A stretch of DNA of 64,000 bases from Lusitaniella coriacea LEGE 07157 (lineage in GTDB: Bacteria; Cyanobacteriota; Cyanobacteriia; Cyanobacteriales; Spirulinaceae): contig NZ_JADEWZ010000001.1 of assembly GCF_015207425.1 (NCBI RefSeq), forward strand, positions 62,001-126,000. Direction: 5' to 3'. The notes under the pieces are model-generated. The model saw only the letters and a list, made by a program, of their open reading frames with translations, did not search any database and had not been told where the DNA came from. The first letter of the stretch is position 1. Every line of letters begins with the position of its first letter. Below, piece after piece: positions 21,467 through 29,382 of this stretch. The position numbers and the translations under genes are program-made.

Positions 21467-23692
21467 TTAAACGACCTTAAACGGAATGGACAGCGCTGCC
21501 ATTTCCCTGACCCGTTGCTTCACAACAAACGCCGCCTCATCGTTATCTTCTCCACGGGAATTGCCTAAGTCAACAACTAAATCGGTGACTAAATTAACTG
21601 CATCATTTCCGCCCCGCGATACGATTCCCCGTCTCATACCATCTGTTCGCGCCCAATTTCGTACGCGCGCTAAAGCATTGCTCAGGGGATGTTTACTGGC
21701 AACAATTAGAAATTCTGCGGCTTTTCGGAAATTAGCCTCCAAACTAAAATTATCTTTTTCTGGGTCGGGAATTAACAATTGGCGACTCGCTTCAAGTTTT
21801 GTTGCATCCCAGTCTTCTCCCTCATCTACAAAATCATTAGGAAAGAGTACAGCCACTCCTCGGCTAGGATCGATCAAAATAATACCGATGTAGAGAGGAC
21901 TAGAACCCTGGTTTTCAATCAAGAACTGATACACATTGCCAAGTTGTACTTGCTCACCTCGACTTGCGCCAGACTTGCAGGGCTTAACATCACACACCTC
22001 TTCTCCGCGCCCTTCCCCTCGAACGGTAAAGGATTGAGCAATGATTTCATCCTCCTGACCTTCCAAACGCATTGTTGCTTTGATGCCAAGATGCGAAGAT
22101 TCAGCGTTGAGGGTTGTTTTAACCAAATGAGCGGCAAATAAAGATTGAAATTTAGTATCTAAACGAGTCACTGCACTTGCAACACTTTCCCCTGGTTCGT
22201 CCCAAGAATTGGGCAAGACTTCCAACGACGGGGTAAAGAGGCAGATGCTCCCTTCTGGGGGTAAGGAGGAGCCTTGAATTAGCTTTCGATACTCCTCGGT
22301 CATCCGGGAGAGGATGTAGTGTACGTTGTCGGAGTAGGTGCTGTTTGGGGTGGGTGCAGGGATGGGTTGAATGCGGTTCATTTTTTTTAATTCGGTTTGA
22401 GCTGTCACCATTTCCGCACCGAGGGAGACATCCAAACCAATCTTTAATTGGAGGTCTTTGGGAATCATCCGAGCGTATTCTTGCAGGAGATCCCCAGCTT
22501 TAACTGTTCCGTCAGTGACTGTTGCTTGGGCTTCTAAGCCTTTGCGGGAGGTGATTTGGACTTTAGTCTTTACTTCCTCGTTATCGGAGATTGGGGCCAA
22601 AATCGCCTCGTCGATCGCGTACAAACTATTTCGACTCATTCCCCCTAACCAAATTGTGGCTTGGTTTCCCCGAACGGCGGTAACGAGGGCATCGGCTCCG
22701 GTGCGTTGGGGTTCGAGGAAATAAACGGGTTTTTCTCTGTCTTGGCTGCTTGCGGCTACGTCTAGGTACGGGTCTTGTGCAGAGATACGATCGACTTTAT
22801 TGCTAACTCGTGCGATCGCGCGCTCGACATCCTCGGTTCGCTGCCAAAGGTACTGGGTGAGTAAATAGGTGAACGCTCCTGCAACAAAACCGGAAAAGGG
22901 ATAATCGGCGGCGGGTTGATCCGCTTGAGCCGAAGCGATAACCACTCCAGGGGCTGCATTTTGTTTGCGTTTCTCCTGAAAATCTTCGGGAGACATTTTC
23001 AATTCAGCCAACAATTCTTGTTGATATTCTCGTTCGGCTGCACTCAGTTTATAGGTGTCGCCGTTTTCGTCCTTGTTGCGAGCGGCTCTGACGCGCACAT
23101 TTCCCCGCGTTCCGCCACCGGAGTGGCAGCTATCCAACACGAACGTAATGTTTTGAGTCTTTTGTCCGAGGATATACCGCAACAGGAATAGGGTATGCCC
23201 CGTAATATCATCTACCACGCTTTGGGAGGTTAGCGCGCGATCGTTATAGGGGACAAAGGTGCTATTGCGTCCATCATTGGAAATTGGATTGGGGTCAAAA
23301 ACGCGGGAACCGTGACCGGAAAAGTGGAATACAACTACATCTCCGGGTTGTGCTTGTTCGATTAAATGACTTTTAAAAGTTTTTAGGATTTCTTCGCGAG
23401 TGGCTTGAGCGTCGGTCAGAATGACAATATCTTCTTCTTGAAACCCAAAACGACCCATTAACAAGGCTTTTTGTAATTTAGTATCGTAAACGCACCCATC
23501 CAAAGCCGTGAAGCGCGAGCTATTGGGATATTTGTCGATGCCAACCAGTAGAGCAAGTTTGCGCGGGACATTTTGGGCTAAAACTTTGCTATAACGCAAG
23601 CTTTGATTTTCGAGATCGAGCTGACTTAAGCCAATAGCGGTTAAGGCGGAACCCGCAAATTGCAAGAAATGACGGCGTTTGATCCGAGACAT
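21467..23692 (-). CDS. TAT-exported caspase-like protease (orthocaspase, peptidase C14)
   Basis: The 741-residue protein has a twin-arginine signal (SRIKRRHFLQFAGSALTAIG) and then a caspase p20-like domain. Visible elements: KLALLVGIDKYP, catalytic His127 in VVVFHFSGHGSR and catalytic Cys189 in FVLDSCHSGGG, followed by PGVVIASAQADQPAADYPF and GAFTYLLTQYLW. After about residue 330 comes a long C-terminal region without a familiar fold, ending in a segment (PLYIGIILIDPSRGVAVLFP, RKAAEFLIVASKHPLS) found in other cyanobacterial caspase-like proteins. The dyad is intact, so proteolysis, probably after arginine or lysine as in metacaspases, is expected in the periplasm. It lies just downstream of the LRAT-like cassette on the same strand, 291 bases away. 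Confidence 0.92.
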   Translation of the reverse strand: MSRIKRRHFLQFAGSALTAIGLSQLDLENQSLRYSKVLAQNVPRKLALLVGIDKYPNSSRFTALDGCVYDTKLQKALLMGRFGFQEEDIVILTDAQATREEILKTFKSHLIEQAQPGDVVVFHFSGHGSRVFDPNPISNDGRNSTFVPYNDRALTSQSVVDDITGHTLFLLRYILGQKTQNITFVLDSCHSGGGTRGNVRVRAARNKDENGDTYKLSAAEREYQQELLAELKMSPEDFQEKRKQNAAPGVVIASAQADQPAADYPFSGFVAGAFTYLLTQYLWQRTEDVERAIARVSNKVDRISAQDPYLDVAASSQDREKPVYFLEPQRTGADALVTAVRGNQATIWLGGMSRNSLYAIDEAILAPISDNEEVKTKVQITSRKGLEAQATVTDGTVKAGDLLQEYARMIPKDLQLKIGLDVSLGAEMVTAQTELKKMNRIQPIPAPTPNSTYSDNVHYILSRMTEEYRKLIQGSSLPPEGSICLFTPSLEVLPNSWDEPGESVASAVTRLDTKFQSLFAAHLVKTTLNAESSHLGIKATMRLEGQEDEIIAQSFTVRGEGRGEEVCDVKPCKSGASRGEQVQLGNVYQFLIENQGSSPLYIGIILIDPSRGVAVLFPNDFVDEGEDWDATKLEASRQLLIPDPEKDNFSLEANFRKAAEFLIVASKHPLSNALARVRNWARTDGMRRGIVSRGGNDAVNLVTDLVVDLGNSRGEDNDEAAFVVKQRVREMAALSIPFKVV

Positions 23693-23816: not shown

Positions 23817-23908
23817 AGATAAAATCTGTTTGAATCCCCCTAGTTAGGGCTGACATGGTGACGGGGAGAAGTTTTTACAATGGGCAATTTGAAAGATTTG
23901 ATATCAAA
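23817..23908 (+). mobile_element. MITE-like dispersed repeat, copy A
   Basis: About 90 bp. The left end is GATAAAATCTGTTTGAA and the right end CAATTTGAAAGATTTGATAT, an imperfect terminal inverted repeat. The inner part (GTTAGGGCTGACA, GACGGGGAGAAGTTTTTACAATGGGCAA) is shared with copies at 27168 and 29192. No coding capacity; a short non-autonomous element is likely. Confidence 0.6.
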
Positions 23909-23983: not shown

Positions 23984-24808
23984 TCAAAGTCGATTTTTAA
24001 AAGATAATCTCAGTGCGGCTTGAATCGTTTTCGGCACTGCACCTGTTGCATCGCTCAACCAGCCCAAAGAAGAATTTAACAACGCTGTTGCCTTTTCAAC
24101 TGTTGTGCCATATACGACTTTGACTTGTTCGGGCGTTCCATTATTAATTCGGGTAACAACGTCCTGACGCTGCGATTCGCTGAGGTTGTGCCAAACTTTT
24201 TTGCTAATGATACCCATTCCCGCGATCGCGACTACTGCACCCCCCGTTGAAACTGCCGCTACAATCGCCGTTCCCGCCGCTATACCGCCACCACCAGCCG
24301 CCAGCGTCCCCCCTCCTAACCACGCAAGTGCTGCATTGGTTGCAGCCGCACCGCTCAAAGTTCCAATCGCCGTTCCCGTTGACGCAGTTGCTCCCAGCGT
24401 TGCCGCAATCGTGACAACTGTCCCCGCAGAAGCACCCACTCCAACCATTGCACCACCAACAATTTCTGCTGTGCCAAATTTCAGTACGCCGGATTGCGTT
24501 GAGTAAGCTTTTCCGGTTGTCATTAATGTGACCCAATGTTCGCAATTAAACTCGGTGACGTGATACTTTCGCGCTTTTTCGGCTGTAAGGGCATCTTTAA
24601 AAGATTTAATATTCTTTTTAATTGTCTCGAAATCAAAAACTTTGCCCTTAACCTCAACTCTTTCCCATCCTTGACCTTCAATCGGTTTAACTTCTAATAT
24701 CGATGTATTCACCCAACCAACCGTGTGATTTTCAGCAATAACAATTGCGTAGTGAGCAACGGCTCCATGATTGTGTTTAACAATTTGTCCGAGTTGAAAG
24801 TTTGACAT
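23984..24808 (-). CDS. LRAT-like (NCEHW) protein with Gly/Ala-rich membrane region
   Basis: 274 residues. The N-terminal ~100 residues match the lecithin:retinol acyltransferase-like fold, a permuted papain/NlpC-P60 fold: a histidine in VAHYAIVIAENHTVGWVN (H19) and the catalytic cysteine in FNCEHWVTLMTTGK (C89), the NCEHF/W motif. Residues ~110-200 are very rich in Gly, Ala and Thr with glycine-zipper spacing and could insert in a membrane. The C-terminus is hydrophilic. Family members transfer acyl groups or hydrolyse lipids or amides. It is the last gene of a tight three-gene operon: only five bases separate it from the gene before it. This combination is not one I recognise as described. 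Confidence 0.7.
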   Translation of the reverse strand: MSNFQLGQIVKHNHGAVAHYAIVIAENHTVGWVNTSILEVKPIEGQGWERVEVKGKVFDFETIKKNIKSFKDALTAEKARKYHVTEFNCEHWVTLMTTGKAYSTQSGVLKFGTAEIVGGAMVGVGASAGTVVTIAATLGATASTGTAIGTLSGAAATNAALAWLGGGTLAAGGGGIAAGTAIVAAVSTGGAVVAIAGMGIISKKVWHNLSESQRQDVVTRINNGTPEQVKVVYGTTVEKATALLNSSLGWLSDATGAVPKTIQAALRLSFKNRL

Positions 24809-24813
24809 TATTT

Positions 24814-25755
24814 TTAATTGTTTTTGTATTCGCTTTTTGAGAAAAATTCGACTAAATATTCTTGCTCGATTTTTTGCATTGAGGAAAAACTGCCACCTGA
24901 CTGCAAGCCGAAATCAGATATCTTCGCTTCTAAATTTGCTGTTATGCCAAAGTTTTGTGCGTAAGTAAAGCTGACTTTGAAGCGATTAACCCAATGCTTG
25001 ACTCTTGCTTCTGCCATTGCTTGCCATAGTGGTTCTTGCGAAAACCAGCGTAAGTTTTGAGGAATTGTTGGCATATTTGTTGGCGAATCGAACGCGGCAG
25101 CCAAGCTAAAGTTTACTTTTGTCTTATTGGTCGCTTTAATCTCTCCTCCTATTGTACTCATCGTTGTTGGTTCGGGAATTGAAATCCCAACCCCTGCATC
25201 TCGACTTGCAATTTTGCTATCGATCAGTTCGATTTTCTTGGCTCCTAAAGCAGAGGCAAGACGAACAAATTTTCCTCGTTTATCTTGTAAAAGATAAGAA
25301 TGGAATTCAGCTAAAGGCAAGAGAAAATCGGACTGTCTGGGATGTGTGGCATAAACAATATTCTCTTGAAATTGACTATTAAGACAGCTTAACTTTGTGA
25401 GATAGGGATCGTTTGGTTTGACGATTCTAGCTTCAGGGAATGCAGATTCTATATCTTGACGGTAAAGCTTTCGCAAGAGTTCTAGGATTAAAGGTTTAAC
25501 CGATTCAATAACTAAACCTTTGGCTTCAGGATCGTTAGTTTTGGTTGTACTGTTATAGAGTTCGATGCTCTTATCTAATAGAGCTGCAAAAGCAGCAGGG
25601 GCAAGTGAAAACTGAGCCGTCTTCTTAAGTATTTTACGCCCCATTGAAGGCGGTTTAGCTTGAAGCAAATCGTAGGCAATTTTTTCTAACGCTTCATCGC
25701 TTGGCACAAGTCCGGCAGTAGATTTAACGATGAGAAGTTGGCGATCGCTTTTCAT
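24814..25755 (-). CDS. Unknown protein, middle gene of the LRAT-like cassette
   Basis: The 313-residue protein has no domain I can name. The N-terminal third is helical (SDEALEKIAYDLLQAK, a run of basic residues, then QFSLAPAAFAALLDK). The C-terminal third has a regular beta-rich look with NLRWFSQEPLWQAMAEAR, FKVSFTYAQNFGITANLEAK and FGLQSGGSF, alternating charged and hydrophobic residues as in a membrane-binding or scaffold domain. It starts 30 bases after the nuclease-like gene and ends five bases before the LRAT-like gene, so the three form one operon. Resemblance to pore-forming proteins is only a thought and is not shown. Confidence 0.6.
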   Translation of the reverse strand: MKSDRQLLIVKSTAGLVPSDEALEKIAYDLLQAKPPSMGRKILKKTAQFSLAPAAFAALLDKSIELYNSTTKTNDPEAKGLVIESVKPLILELLRKLYRQDIESAFPEARIVKPNDPYLTKLSCLNSQFQENIVYATHPRQSDFLLPLAEFHSYLLQDKRGKFVRLASALGAKKIELIDSKIASRDAGVGISIPEPTTMSTIGGEIKATNKTKVNFSLAAAFDSPTNMPTIPQNLRWFSQEPLWQAMAEARVKHWVNRFKVSFTYAQNFGITANLEAKISDFGLQSGGSFSSMQKIEQEYLVEFFSKSEYKNN

Positions 25756-25785: not shown

Positions 25786-26982
25786 TTACTCCAATAGTCG
25801 GTCGAGTTCGTCTTGCATGGCTTGCATTTCAGCAGCAGAGGCTGTCGCCGAAGCAGAGGAACTTCCGAGTAAATCCCAAGGGTTTTGTTTGAGGTGTGCT
25901 TGACTTGCTGCGATTCCTTTGTGAATTCCGTTGTTAACAGCTTGCTTCCATTCTGGAGAAATTTCAACCCAAATTGCTTGCAAAATCGAAGTACTCAATA
26001 ATGCTGTTCCGATGGGGGGAAAGAGGAGGACTAATGTTGTGATGACTCCTGATGTAAAGGCTCTCGGCCCGACTTGCGCGATCGCGCGATTGTAGCTCAT
26101 TTCTCCCATAATAACTTGAATTAAAACAGGAACAACTTCGGCACTTAAGGTGAAACCCAATGCTGCAAAAGTATTCCCCTTCATTAGCTTTTGAATGACT
26201 TTAATTGCCGCACCGCGAACGAAGCCATTTTGCAATCCTTTAATCGCAATTCCCAAGATGCGATCCAATTCCTTTTGGGCAATTTCTTGTTCGCCTCGAC
26301 AGTAAGCACCCAATATGACAATCGATTGCAAAACAACTTCAATTGTGGCTTGAATTGTTGCACTGACCGCTCCCGCGCTACCAATTTCCCCAACTGTTGC
26401 CGAGGTTTGAATGAAATTGGCGGCGAGATAAGGATTCTTGGCAACCCATTGAGTCACATTCAAGGGGATGGGAAAACTATGAATGCCATCAACATCGATG
26501 ACAATTGTGGTGTTATCCAGTCCAGAGTTTTCTGAATTAGTGAGGATCTTTCCGGAGTAACGATCGCTGCTGGCTTGCTTTCTTACATATTCAGAAGAGC
26601 CTGCTTTTGCTTGAATTTGAGCAATAACTTCGCCGATTTTCTCAATGTAAATGTCAGGACTATATTTGGTTGTGCCATCAGCCGGAATCTGATAAGCACG
26701 AGCTTCAGAATCTTGCAGTGCGGCGTTAATATTAAAGCCAAGGGCTTGCAAATGCTCGAAGGCAAAACCAAAAGCTTGGGGGTTTTTGCTAATAGCGCGA
26801 TCGCTTTTATTAATCAATCCCGCACCAGGTTCGAGTAGGGTTTTGGCTCCATCTCGTGCGGCTTGGGCGGCGGTTGAGAGGTTTTGGGTTAGGGTAGGAA
26901 TTAGTCCGGCAATGATGGCGTTGAGAGAATGTTTCTTTTTCACTATTGCTCTACTTTGTTGTTCTTTTCTTAGTATTCCCAA
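25786..26982 (-). CDS. PD-(D/E)XK-like nuclease with hydrophobic C-terminal region (candidate toxin/effector)
   Basis: 398 residues. Residues ~70-150 have the spacing of a restriction-endonuclease-like core: Glu76 in FGFAFEHLQALGFN, Asp110 in KYSPDIYIEKIG and Gln124-x-Lys126 in IAQIQAKAGSS, i.e. E...D...QxK. The remainder has several hydrophobic, glycine-containing helices (LGFTLSAEVVPVLIQVIMG, FTSGVITTLVLLFPPIGTAL) that could span a membrane, then an acidic tail (AEMQAMQDELDRLLE). First gene of the three-gene cassette. The start is uncertain: TTG at 26982 or GTG at 26943, neither with a strong ribosome site. The nuclease reading rests on motif spacing alone. Confidence 0.5.
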   Translation of the reverse strand: MGILRKEQQSRAIVKKKHSLNAIIAGLIPTLTQNLSTAAQAARDGAKTLLEPGAGLINKSDRAISKNPQAFGFAFEHLQALGFNINAALQDSEARAYQIPADGTTKYSPDIYIEKIGEVIAQIQAKAGSSEYVRKQASSDRYSGKILTNSENSGLDNTTIVIDVDGIHSFPIPLNVTQWVAKNPYLAANFIQTSATVGEIGSAGAVSATIQATIEVVLQSIVILGAYCRGEQEIAQKELDRILGIAIKGLQNGFVRGAAIKVIQKLMKGNTFAALGFTLSAEVVPVLIQVIMGEMSYNRAIAQVGPRAFTSGVITTLVLLFPPIGTALLSTSILQAIWVEISPEWKQAVNNGIHKGIAASQAHLKQNPWDLLGSSSASATASAAEMQAMQDELDRLLE

Positions 26983-27167: not shown

Positions 27168-27265
27168 CATATCAAATCCGTTTGAATTGCCATAGTTAGG
27201 ATTGACACGGAGAGACGGTGACACGGAGAAGGAGAGAATTTTTTACAATGGGCAATTTGAAAGAC
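27168..27265 (+). mobile_element. MITE-like dispersed repeat, copy B
   Basis: The left end CATATCAAATCCGTTTGAA matches the inverted right end of copy A. The inner part has two GACACGGAGA-type units and TTTTTTACAATGGGCAATTTGAAAGA. It ends within nine bases of the stop codon of the CHAT gene at 27274. A relic of the GTTGGGTTTCGC...CTAACCTAC repeat lies directly to its left (27127-27158). Confidence 0.6.
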
Positions 27266-27273
27266 AGGCGCTA

Positions 27274-29382
27274 TTAAGGTTCTCCCACAAGGACAAATGC
27301 CGCCCAGTCAATGGGTTGCGGGTATTCCTTTTGGGTTTTGAGCATGGCTTGGCGCAGGGCTTGTGCCGCGTCGGGATTTTGCTGTAGGTTGCGATAAAAC
27401 TCGACCATTAACGCCGCAGTGGGGGCATCGGGAACAGACCATAGGGAAACAACGACGCGGGGAACTCCTGCTGCAATAAAGGCGCGTGACAACCCGATAA
27501 CGCCATCCCCTGTAATCCGTCCGCGTCCGGTGTCGCAGGCACTCAAAACGGCGAGTTGGGCGTTGAGGTTCAAGGGGGTAATTTCTTTGGCACTCAAAAA
27601 ACCGTTGCCATCTTCGGAATCCAATGCTGGGTCGGGTGCGAAGGCAAGGAGTCCCGGCATGGCAACCCGCGCGATTTTCTCTCTGGAAAAGGCGATGTTT
27701 GCAGGAACGCCGCCGATAAAAACGTTATCCCCAACGATAATTGAACCAGGAGTGGCATAAACCCTGCTCTCTCTTGCGGTGGGGAGTGTGGGGTCGAGGG
27801 CTTCTCCAAAGGCGTTCAAGTCTGCATCAAAATCCAGCAGTCCGTGGGTGGCGAAGTGAAGGATTGCGGCATCTGACATTCGCTGTCGAATTGCTTTTTC
27901 GGTTGCCGCATTTCCAGAAATTGCGGTCGTGTTGAAAAGGGACGCAATCGCGCGAGCTTCTTCTCCGGCTCCTGGGAGGTCTTCTAAGGGCTGCAACGTC
28001 TCGTTTTCGAGGGGGATGCTGGGCATGGTGGGATTGCCCACAATTAGCATTTTTTCACCTTCTAAGGGGATGGGTTTTGCCTGTTGGCGCGTCAAACCGA
28101 GGAGTTGGATGGAGGGGGAAAGAGTGAGGGTATGGTGTTGAATGAGGTATTGTCCTTCGGGGTCGCGTAAGGCGGCAAAGGGAACGAGAAAGAGCGATCC
28201 TTCGGGGATAAATGTCACCCTTGCTTCGGGGTCTTTGGGGAGGAATTCAGCGATGGGTGCAATGAGGAGTTGGTGCAGTTTTTTCAAGCTGGATTCTCGG
28301 CGGTTACGGCGACCTCTGCGACCTCGACCCGCTAAACCAATGGTTGTCCTCGCGTCTTCTACGAGTTTGCGCATCGATTCGACCTCTTGGGATTGCAAAT
28401 CGACGGCGCGAAAGTGAACGTTTCCGTTGGGTTGCACGACCCAAATATAAAGGTGCGTTTCGTCTCTGGGTTCGATGCCGAGGACGCGCACTTCTCGACC
28501 GACAAGGGAATATTCGACTAAGGTGGCTTGTTGTTCCCGTGCAATTTGCTTGATTTGGTTCAAATTGGGGAATTTTGGCGCGACTGCTCCGTTATTTTGC
28601 GCTAATTGTTCCACTAAGGAACGGGCGCGACTCCATTCGGACATTTCCAATGCCGCATCGGTTTTATTTTGAGCCACCAAGACTTTTTGTTGCAAGCGGT
28701 AGGCGTGCGCCTGTTGCTCGAAGAGGGTAACTTTATCGAGGTCGTTGTTGTCGGATTGGGCGCGGAGGGTTTCCCAATACGCGATCGCGCGTTGTAAAAT
28801 TTCCTCTGCTTGGGCATATTGTCCCGTTTCAAAAAAGGCTAAACCAAGATTGACCCAATCCGGCGCGCTGCCGCCATTTTGAGCGATAATTTCTTCAAAG
28901 TGCGCGATCGCGCCATCGTAATCTTCCATTAACAGCGTTGTTTTCGCTAACTCCCGCAGGGCTGTTTGGGCTTCCTCTTCATCCCCAATCTCTTGGTAAA
29001 ATTCCAACAGTTGGTGATAAGCTTGCGCTGCTAGTTCGTATTCTCCGCGATCGCGCAGTTGGGTTGCTCGATTCTCCAGTTGAATGGCTTCCTCTAACCG
29101 CGTTTCCGAACTTTGCGCAAAGAGAATACCCTTTTTATTGAATTCGACTAAAGAGGATTGAGGGGAAGACAGGGTGACGGGGGGACGGGGTGATATAAGA
29201 TCCGGTTGAATGCCCTCGGTAAGGACTGACACGGAGAATCGGAGACACGGGGACACGGAGAAGTTTTTACAGTGAGCAATTAAGAGGATTTGATATGATT
29301 GAGAAATCGCCTGAGTTTTTACGGGTACAACAAAGAGAGAGAGAAACGCAAGTGTTGTGAGTGAATGAAGATATCTTTTCAT
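27274..29382 (-). CDS. TPR-CHAT protease (702 aa) with MITE-like insertion
   Basis: Exported CHAT peptidase. The signal peptide (MKRYLHSLTTLAFLSLFVVP) is followed by a low-complexity part (residues ~28-75) encoded by a dispersed repeat. Helical TPRs follow (RGEYELAAQAYHQLLEFYQ, YDGAIAHFEEIIAQNGG, WVNLGLAFFETGQYAQAEEI), and the CHAT domain runs from about residue 330. Catalytic residues: His in ILHFATHGLLDFD and Cys in LAVLSACDTGRG, with VVSLWSVPDAPTAALMVEFY and the end WAAFVLVGEP. Substrates are unknown. It stands just upstream, on the same strand, of the nuclease-like/LRAT-like cassette and the caspase gene, so two clan CD proteases flank that cassette. Confidence 0.92.
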   Translation of the reverse strand: MKRYLHSLTTLAFLSLFVVPVKTQAISQSYQILLIAHCKNFSVSPCLRFSVSVLTEGIQPDLISPRPPVTLSSPQSSLVEFNKKGILFAQSSETRLEEAIQLENRATQLRDRGEYELAAQAYHQLLEFYQEIGDEEEAQTALRELAKTTLLMEDYDGAIAHFEEIIAQNGGSAPDWVNLGLAFFETGQYAQAEEILQRAIAYWETLRAQSDNNDLDKVTLFEQQAHAYRLQQKVLVAQNKTDAALEMSEWSRARSLVEQLAQNNGAVAPKFPNLNQIKQIAREQQATLVEYSLVGREVRVLGIEPRDETHLYIWVVQPNGNVHFRAVDLQSQEVESMRKLVEDARTTIGLAGRGRRGRRNRRESSLKKLHQLLIAPIAEFLPKDPEARVTFIPEGSLFLVPFAALRDPEGQYLIQHHTLTLSPSIQLLGLTRQQAKPIPLEGEKMLIVGNPTMPSIPLENETLQPLEDLPGAGEEARAIASLFNTTAISGNAATEKAIRQRMSDAAILHFATHGLLDFDADLNAFGEALDPTLPTARESRVYATPGSIIVGDNVFIGGVPANIAFSREKIARVAMPGLLAFAPDPALDSEDGNGFLSAKEITPLNLNAQLAVLSACDTGRGRITGDGVIGLSRAFIAAGVPRVVVSLWSVPDAPTAALMVEFYRNLQQNPDAAQALRQAMLKTQKEYPQPIDWAAFVLVGEP
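29192..29297 (+). mobile_element. MITE-like dispersed repeat, copy C, inside a CHAT gene
   Basis: GATATAAGATCCGGTTGAA at the left and GAGGATTTGATATGATT at the right repeat the inverted ends of copies A and B. The inner part has GACTGACACGGAGAA, GACACGGGGACACGG and AAGTTTTTACAGTGAGCAATT. It lies within the minus-strand CHAT gene and is translated through without a stop (residues ~29-63), directly after the signal peptide. A separate G-rich run (29169-29191) adjoins it. Confidence 0.65.

What the first reader, a model, noticed from the sequence alone, without database searches (positions are those of the whole stretch)
24814..25755. Unrecognised 313-aa protein with an NLRWFSQEPLWQAM domain
The C-terminal third has strong, regular motifs (NLRWFSQEPLWQAMAEAR, VSFTYAQNFGITANLEAK, LQSGGSF) that look like a conserved domain, yet I cannot name one. 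Its position in the middle of the cassette makes it the natural candidate for the core component.
Basis: seen in the sequence. Interest (0 to 1): 0.6.

Follow-up and report, generated by a model that had tools for sequence, protein, structure and literature searches.

The report
Orphan gene inserted in membrane cassette
This is a real gene of a rare, unnamed protein family that is scattered among cyanobacterial genomes; here it sits between two genes of a probable membrane-attacking defence cassette that is found elsewhere without it, so it looks like an add-on rather than the core.

Summary
The ORF is real (24814-25755, minus strand, 313 aa), and residues 115-313 are a genuine conserved domain. 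A profile built without it finds it at E 8.3e-25, the only hit in the window. No Pfam, NCBIfam, PADLOC or PHROG family matches it. The "core component" idea fails. The flanking genes are a ~390-aa membrane protein with a conserved C-terminal tail, and an LRAT-like hydrolase with a glycine-zipper membrane segment. They also pair without it in two other genomes, and with an unrelated gene between them in a third. Of 44 loci scanned, only the window combines the family with these partners. Elsewhere the family occurs without them: often alone, inside a restriction-modification operon, on plasmids, in a zinc-ribbon protein, or (a distant branch) behind a small GTPase and a partner. Best reading: a horizontally acquired, probably non-enzymatic, membrane-proximal accessory of conflict-type modules. 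Family and accessory status are shown; the biochemical role is inferred. A gasdermin-like pore is not excluded (1 of 13 members, E 0.039), but no usable structure was obtained (pLDDT 38) and two gasdermin features testable by sequence were not met.

The parts
24814..25755 (-). 313-aa gene of the finding; ATG at 25755
   Evidence: leave-one-out E 8.3e-25; GC 40.1% against 45.3% and 47.3% for its operon neighbours
24817..25413 (-). conserved domain, residues 115-313
   Evidence: alignments; profile searches
25339..25353 (-). Y135-x2-H138-P139 motif
   Evidence: 6 of 6 rows; P139 in 19 of 19 rows
25240..25248 (-). LGA motif, residues 170-172
   Evidence: G171 and A172 in 19 of 19 rows
25003..25056 (-). 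NLRWFSQEPLWQAMAEAR, residues 234-251; W237 and R251 conserved
   Evidence: R251 in 19 of 19 rows
25786..26982 (-). upstream cassette gene, 398-aa ORF from TTG; GTG at 26943 (385 aa) is a likelier start. E66-D100-QxK116 pattern (numbered as) suggests a PD-(D/E)xK-type nuclease-like N part (inference); hydrophobic C part
   Evidence: no family match
25789..25923 (-). C-terminal ~45-aa tail (HLKxNPWDLLGSSSAS...ELDRLLE) shared with otherwise unrelated cassette proteins
   Evidence: tail profile finds the unrelated proteins at 2.5e-24 and 9.3e-23; N parts unrelated, hhalign E 0.76
23984..24808 (-). downstream cassette gene, 274 aa: LRAT-like domain (H19, NC89EHW) plus glycine-zipper membrane segment; 5 bp after the 313-aa gene
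   Evidence: PF04970 22.1 bits, below cut-off 24.3; PDC-M09A 3e-18
23851..23896 (-). one copy of a 46-bp direct repeat flanking the three genes
27219..27264 (-). other copy of the 46-bp direct repeat, 89% identical; a third related copy lies at about 29190-29296

Best explanation
The 313-aa protein belongs to a rare, fast-evolving, unnamed domain family. The gene was acquired horizontally and inserted between the two genes of an LRAT/390-aa cassette, with which it is now probably co-transcribed (gaps of 30 and 5 bp). Shown: a real gene, a real family, and not a constant part of the cassette. Inferred: it is a non-enzymatic, membrane-proximal adaptor or regulator. The conserved residues (Y-x2-HP, LGA, W, R, VEF) look structural and form no obvious catalytic set. 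The membrane link would come in cis in the 8 of 19 aligned rows with a hydrophobic segment before the domain. Otherwise it would come in trans: from the small GTPase and partner (both with hydrophobic segments, judged by eye) in the distant branch, and from the LRAT and 390-aa proteins in the window. The cassette itself most likely works as a conflict (defence-like) module: the tailed protein(s) sense or cut, and the LRAT-zipper protein attacks lipid at the membrane. The 313-aa protein would tune or redirect that.
For: Family: leave-one-out E 8.3e-25; 18 of 388 genomes of the order, own genome included, 2 of 386 in an even draw over the phylum, own included, 16 of 61 in one family, 4 of 79 around G445; these draws overlap. 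Accessory: two intact 390-aa/LRAT pairs without a middle gene and one with an unrelated one; none of the other 43 loci combines the two sets. Horizontal: GC 40.1% against 45.3/47.3%; the only other member found in the window's taxonomic family (L049) groups with members of other families (support 88/86), not with the window; 2 of the 13 same-family genomes listed have the gene. Conflict-type settings: in a Planktothrix plasmid between a DNA methylase gene (8 bp before) and a ResIII enzyme gene (4 bp overlap); LRAT partner beside DISARM drmD on a Synechococcus plasmid; LRAT partner matches PADLOC PDC-M09A. Membrane link: hydrophobic segment in 8 of 19 rows; in the distant branch the GTPase was found in 7 of 8 and the partner in 8 of 8 loci, though 4 of the 8 loci were used to build each of those profiles.
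Against: No usable structure, and no expression or phenotype data. The window protein itself has no clear hydrophobic segment (best 19-residue mean 1.14). Near-branch relatives show no recurrent partner, which fits an independent function as well as an adaptor. The GTPase trio is tied only to the distant branch (0 of 20 near-branch rows), and its 8 loci include close relatives, so they are fewer independent cases. Only four intact 390-aa/LRAT pairs are known. Defence is guilt by association; PADLOC, Pfam and NCBIfam do not recognise the protein.
Confidence: 0.5

Rival explanations
1. Independent passenger: a stand-alone gene with its own function that happens to have landed in the operon and does not touch its neighbours.
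For: Near-branch relatives sit among varied genes with no partner recurring across the branch, as far as read by eye; none of 27 other family loci has the cassette partners.
Against: Tight packing (30 and 5 bp) in the same direction inside the operon; in the distant branch the family is tied to the same partner gene in 8 of 8 loci.
Confidence: 0.27
2. Pore-former: a gasdermin- or MACPF-like membrane effector released by the LRAT-like hydrolase or another cysteine protease nearby.
For: NCBIfam prok_gasdermin hits 1 of 13 members at E 0.039, the only NCBIfam hit at E 0.1; a cysteine hydrolase is encoded beside it; caspase and CHAT genes lie within 2 kb.
Against: About half a hit at that E is expected by chance over 13 members, and the window member itself has none. 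No gasdermin among the hits of 19 members in Pfam or PADLOC at E 1 (that these libraries hold gasdermin models is recalled), nor in PDB sequences at E 10. No N-terminal Cys; only 9 residues follow invariant F304, so little room for the inhibitory peptide described for bacterial gasdermins (PMC10989679, passages). Relative L007 carries the domain inside a larger protein.
Confidence: 0.1
3. Immunity or antitoxin protein that restrains the LRAT or 390-aa protein.
For: Small gene placed between two probable membrane-active proteins, 5 bp before the LRAT gene.
Against: The pair exists without it in two genomes (L019, L080), and the family exists without the pair in 27 of 27 other family loci.
Confidence: 0.1
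4. Core component of the cassette.
For: Middle position in the window operon.
Against: Absent from the other three intact 390-aa/LRAT pairs, and from all 16 other cassette or 390-aa-family loci.
Confidence: 0.03

Closest known systems
PADLOC PDC-M09A (candidate defence protein) - the LRAT partner, not the 313-aa protein
   Same: The window's LRAT-zipper protein matches two PDC-M09A models at 3e-18 (residues 82-208) and 1.9e-17 (83-201)
   Different: The match covers the NCEH end and the membrane zipper, not the whole LRAT domain; the 313-aa protein itself matches no PADLOC model
LRAT / PLAAT-type permuted papain-like hydrolases (PF04970) - the partner
   Same: NCEH motif and upstream His; lipid-acting family (PMC10318531, passages)
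   Different: 22.1 bits, below the 24.3 cut-off; apart from H19, only H83 and H91 are invariant His in 4 aligned members, so the second triad His (spacing recalled) is not seen; carries a glycine-zipper segment
Bacterial gasdermins (NF051890)
   Same: One weak profile hit (1 of 13 members, E 0.039); cysteine hydrolase gene nearby
   Different: No N-terminal Cys, 9 residues only after the last conserved Phe, no Pfam, PADLOC or PDB match
Ras-like/AP-GTPases of prokaryotic conflict systems (PMC7159879, PMC8195603; passages)
   Same: Distant-branch members sit behind a small GTPase (Roc PF08477, 4.2e-6, just over its cut-off)
   Different: Here the GTPase has a hydrophobic N-terminal segment (by eye) and two unnamed partners; other components of those systems were not searched for. 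The window shows no such GTPase

Membership tests
Bacterial gasdermin | Significant match to a gasdermin profile | tested here: inconclusive
   NCBIfam NF051890 E 0.039 in 1 of 13 members (which member is not shown); none in Pfam or PADLOC for 19 members; window protein itself 0 NCBIfam hits
Bacterial gasdermin | Cysteine at the extreme N-terminus for palmitoylation | tested here: not met
   Window protein begins MKSDRQLLIVKSTAG: no Cys; feature taken from PMC10989679, passages
Bacterial gasdermin | Short C-terminal inhibitory peptide after the pore-forming domain | tested here: not met
   9 residues after the invariant F304
Bacterial gasdermin | Activating protease encoded beside it | tested here: inconclusive
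   LRAT-like cysteine hydrolase 5 bp downstream; whether it is a protease is unknown
Bacterial gasdermin | Gasdermin fold | not testable with these tools
   Single-sequence model pLDDT 38.1; the relatives found could not be handed to the predictor under its stated rule, and both jobs are used
Core component of the LRAT/390-aa cassette | Present in the intact cassettes | tested here: not met
   Absent from 3 of 4 intact 390-aa/LRAT pairs: L016, L019, L080
PADLOC PDC-M08B | Specific profile match | tested here: not met
   3 members (model PDLC04405, best E 0.0061) and 1 member (PDLC04402, E 0.031) of 19; PDLC04405 rings in 72 of 89 genomes, and none of its 4 matches in G554 is at the family's own place there
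LRAT family PF04970 (partner gene) | Score above curated cut-off | tested here: not met
   22.1 bits against 24.3. LRAT-like, not filed as a member
LRAT family PF04970 (partner gene) | Cys/His/His triad (PMC10318531, passages) | tested here: inconclusive
   C89 and H19 invariant in 4 of 4 rows; further invariant His only at 83 and 91
The orphan family described here (near branch) | Profile match over the domain with Y-x2-HP, LGA, W, R and final F | tested here: met
   Leave-one-out E 8.3e-25; motifs

The most novel reading that the evidence does not exclude
A new family of membrane effectors, possibly a gasdermin-like pore-former that lacks the known N-terminal lipid anchor and C-terminal plug, is gated in one branch by a membrane-linked small GTPase plus partner and, in the window, by an LRAT-type lipid hydrolase. 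That would be a modular, swappable pore used across cyanobacterial conflict systems.
Probability: 0.08. Interest if true: 0.78.

Novelty: new variant of a known kind. Interest (0 to 1): 0.42.

Why it matters
It gives an unnamed but testable domain family, with two informative genomic settings. One is a recurrent three-gene operon of small GTPase, partner with hydrophobic segments, and this domain. The other is an LRAT-zipper cassette whose partner proteins share a C-terminal tail; there the domain has been seen once. If the tail is a docking tag for the LRAT effector, and the domain a membrane-side adaptor, cyanobacteria would have a plug-in defence architecture that did not turn up in the open-access searches made here (listings; passages of four papers).

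Tried and rejected
Structure: AlphaFold2 on the window protein alone (pLDDT 38.1), and on the 390-aa partner with its Lyngbya relative (pLDDT 38.6). Both are unusable, so no fold search was run.

Sequence searches: seven viral-contig scans found no relative; the first genome-contig scan, with three family members, found none among 63 pattern matches, and the second, with the LRAT partner, found 1 among 45. These scans need short conserved peptides and miss divergent relatives. Phages gave one hit for the window protein, in an unannotated gut contig, and none for the Pectobacterium relative; plasmids gave two for the window protein, one of them only at E 0.07; the distant-branch protein had none in plasmids; E. 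coli genomes had none at DNA level. PDB matches to the helix-LGAxxI stretch in designed TIM barrels (E 0.0035 at best, summed over repeats) were rejected as a generic helix-strand unit.

G378/L004 (E 9.4e-4) was dropped: it overlaps ordinary genes, and the profile search did not confirm it. PDC-M08B was rejected as an unspecific model. Toxin-antitoxin and core readings were rejected as in the rival list. In one search one slice (L065) was out of frame; its distant-branch results were discarded and redone. Distant-branch hits in G262, G511, G255 and G157 were not fetched. L055 is cut by a contig end and was left out of the alignments and, but is. L079 is the same contig as L019 and was not counted twice.

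Full report
OBSERVATION. The finding's coordinates hold an intact 313-aa ORF on the minus strand; the plus-strand frame translated there is full of stops. A profile of 12 relatives that leaves the window out finds this ORF at E 8.3e-25 and nothing else in six frames of the 64 kb, so the domain is not chance. It has no match in Pfam, PADLOC, NCBIfam or PHROGs at E 1.

THE FAMILY. Near-branch relatives are 15-31% identical to the window over the domain (12 compared). Invariant in 19 of 19 rows: P139, G171, A172, R251, F304. Members were found in 18 of 388 genomes of the order (own genome included), 2 of 386 in an even draw over the phylum (own included), 16 of 61 in one family and 4 of 79 around G445; these draws overlap. 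Further relatives lie on plasmids of Calothrix, Planktothrix and Pectobacterium and in a gut contig. A distant branch is linked by profile (1.5e-12 to 1.2e-5 at Z = 1000 for 5 of 5 members; hhalign probability 96%, E 1.4e-9); the reverse search reached only 3 of 13 near-branch members, the window among them at 1e-4. The conserved residues suggest a structural or binding domain rather than an enzyme (inference). A crude averaged Chou-Fasman reading gave a helix before LGA and little else that is reliable. Eight of 19 rows carry a stretch before the domain with mean hydropathy of at least 1.6 over 19 residues; the window's best is 1.14.

SETTINGS ELSEWHERE. (a) Near-branch members sit among varied genes; members of one genus share neighbours with each other, but by eye no partner recurs across the branch. 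(b) In the Planktothrix plasmid the gene lies between an N6/N4 DNA methylase (1.5e-33; 8 bp gap) and a ResIII enzyme (1.3e-8; 4 bp overlap). (c) In the gut contig the domain sits inside a 681-aa protein with an N-terminal zinc ribbon. (d) In the distant branch, 8 of 8 loci have the same partner gene and 7 of 8 a small GTPase just upstream (Roc 4.2e-6 for one of them); in L065 both are fragments, and in the eighth locus (L063) the contig ends there. Four of the 8 loci were used to build each search profile, so only the other four are independent finds, and some loci are close relatives. 0 of 20 near-branch rows (19 distinct loci) have either gene.

THE CASSETTE IN THE WINDOW. Upstream lies a 398-aa ORF (a GTG start at 26943 looks likelier), with an E-D-QxK pattern suggestive of a PD-(D/E)xK nuclease (inference; no family match) and three hydrophobic stretches. 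Its family was found in 12 of 388 genomes of the order and 3 of 194 of the phylum, own genome included in both. Downstream lies an LRAT-like protein with NCEHW and a glycine zipper: PF04970 22.1 bits, under the 24.3 cut-off; PADLOC PDC-M09A 3e-18. The gaps are 30 and 5 bp. Relatives of the pair: Lyngbya aestuarii (L019, gap 33 bp) and G406 (L080, gap 44 bp) have nothing between them; G036 (L016) has a 258-aa DUF4145-like gene between them (Pfam E 0.015, below cut-off); plasmid pIITB7_1 has a DUF4145-like gene plus LRAT, without the 390-aa gene, beside DISARM drmD. Other loci of the 390-aa family lack the LRAT gene, are fused or look degenerate (L081-L091). In G320 a single 473-aa protein fuses the 390-aa part (58.6% over 331 aa) to the LRAT protein's zipper (74% over 100 aa), which supports joint function. 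The 390-aa and DUF4145-like proteins are unrelated except for a C-terminal tail of about 45 aa (tail profile 2.5e-24 and 9.3e-23; N parts hhalign E 0.76). The tail is a plausible docking tag for the LRAT protein (inference).

THE 313-aa GENE IS AN ADD-ON. In one scan of 44 loci at E 1e-5 (28 with the family including the window, 16 with the cassette or the 390-aa family), only the window has both. The stretches scanned are 4-18 kb except the window, and some are cut by contig ends. Its GC is 40.1% against 45.3% and 47.3% for its neighbours. In the tree the window joins no supported group; its nearest row is L054 at 29%, and the only other member found in its own taxonomic family groups elsewhere (88/86). 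A 46-bp direct repeat (89%) flanks the three genes 3,368 bp apart, with a third related copy further out, a possible route of movement (inference).

MECHANISM. Most likely the LRAT-zipper protein is the membrane-acting effector. LRAT-family enzymes act on lipids at the membrane surface (PMC10318531, passages). The tailed proteins would be sensors or nucleases that recruit it, and the 313-aa protein a membrane-proximal adaptor or regulator acquired later. The first two steps rest on domain likeness, fusion and the shared tail; the last rests on the family's membrane-linked and conflict-type settings. None has been tested at the bench.

GASDERMIN QUESTION. One of 13 members hits NCBIfam prok_gasdermin at E 0.039; about half such a hit is expected by chance for any model. 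Pfam and PADLOC (19 members) and PDB sequences give none. The N-terminal Cys and the C-terminal plug described for bacterial gasdermins (PMC10989679, passages) are absent. It is kept only as the boldest reading.

LITERATURE. Eight searches of open-access full text (listings; passages of four papers) showed no description of this family or of the tail-LRAT cassette. Absence there is weak evidence. The host being a cyanobacterium is read from recalled gene names (such as psaD) and from the relatives' organisms.

CHANGES ON RE-CHECK. Counts now say when the own genome is included, the GTPase/partner counts state that half the loci built the profiles, and the PDC-M08B and LRAT-triad rows were made exact.

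Noticed in passing
window 25789-25923 (-); L016 6544-7320; L011 4163-4918: A C-terminal tail of about 45 aa ending ELDxLLE is shared by two otherwise unrelated kinds of protein encoded before the LRAT-zipper gene, like a docking tag.
   Followed up: partly
L082:2424-3845: A single 473-aa protein fuses the 390-aa cassette protein to the LRAT protein's glycine zipper, without LRAT domain or tail.
   Followed up: partly
L056, L057, L062, L063, L064, L065, L097, L098: Recurrent operon of small GTPase with hydrophobic N-terminus, ~204-277-aa partner with C-terminal hydrophobic segments (by eye), and a distant relative of the 313-aa protein; fragmentary in L065, contig end in L063.
   Followed up: partly
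window 23851-23896, 27219-27264, about 29190-29296: Direct repeat of 46 bp or more in three places; two copies flank the three-gene cassette. Not counted in the rest of the genome.
   Followed up: partly
L011 (plasmid pIITB7_1): The DUF4145-like/LRAT pair sits next to DISARM drmD and a DNA methyltransferase.
   Followed up: no
L085-L088, L017: A separate two-gene module: 306-aa relative of the 390-aa protein plus a conserved ~134-161-aa gene; in L017 beside genes that look like TnsB/TnsC/TniQ (recalled names).
   Followed up: no
window 21467-23692 and 27274-29382: Caspase-like (PF00656) and TPR-CHAT proteins flank the cassette at about 290 bp; probably separate units, common in filamentous cyanobacteria (recalled).
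   Followed up: no
PADLOC model PDLC04405 (PDC-M08B): This defence-candidate model rings in 72 of 89 cyanobacterial genomes, often several times, so it looks unspecific there.
   Followed up: partly
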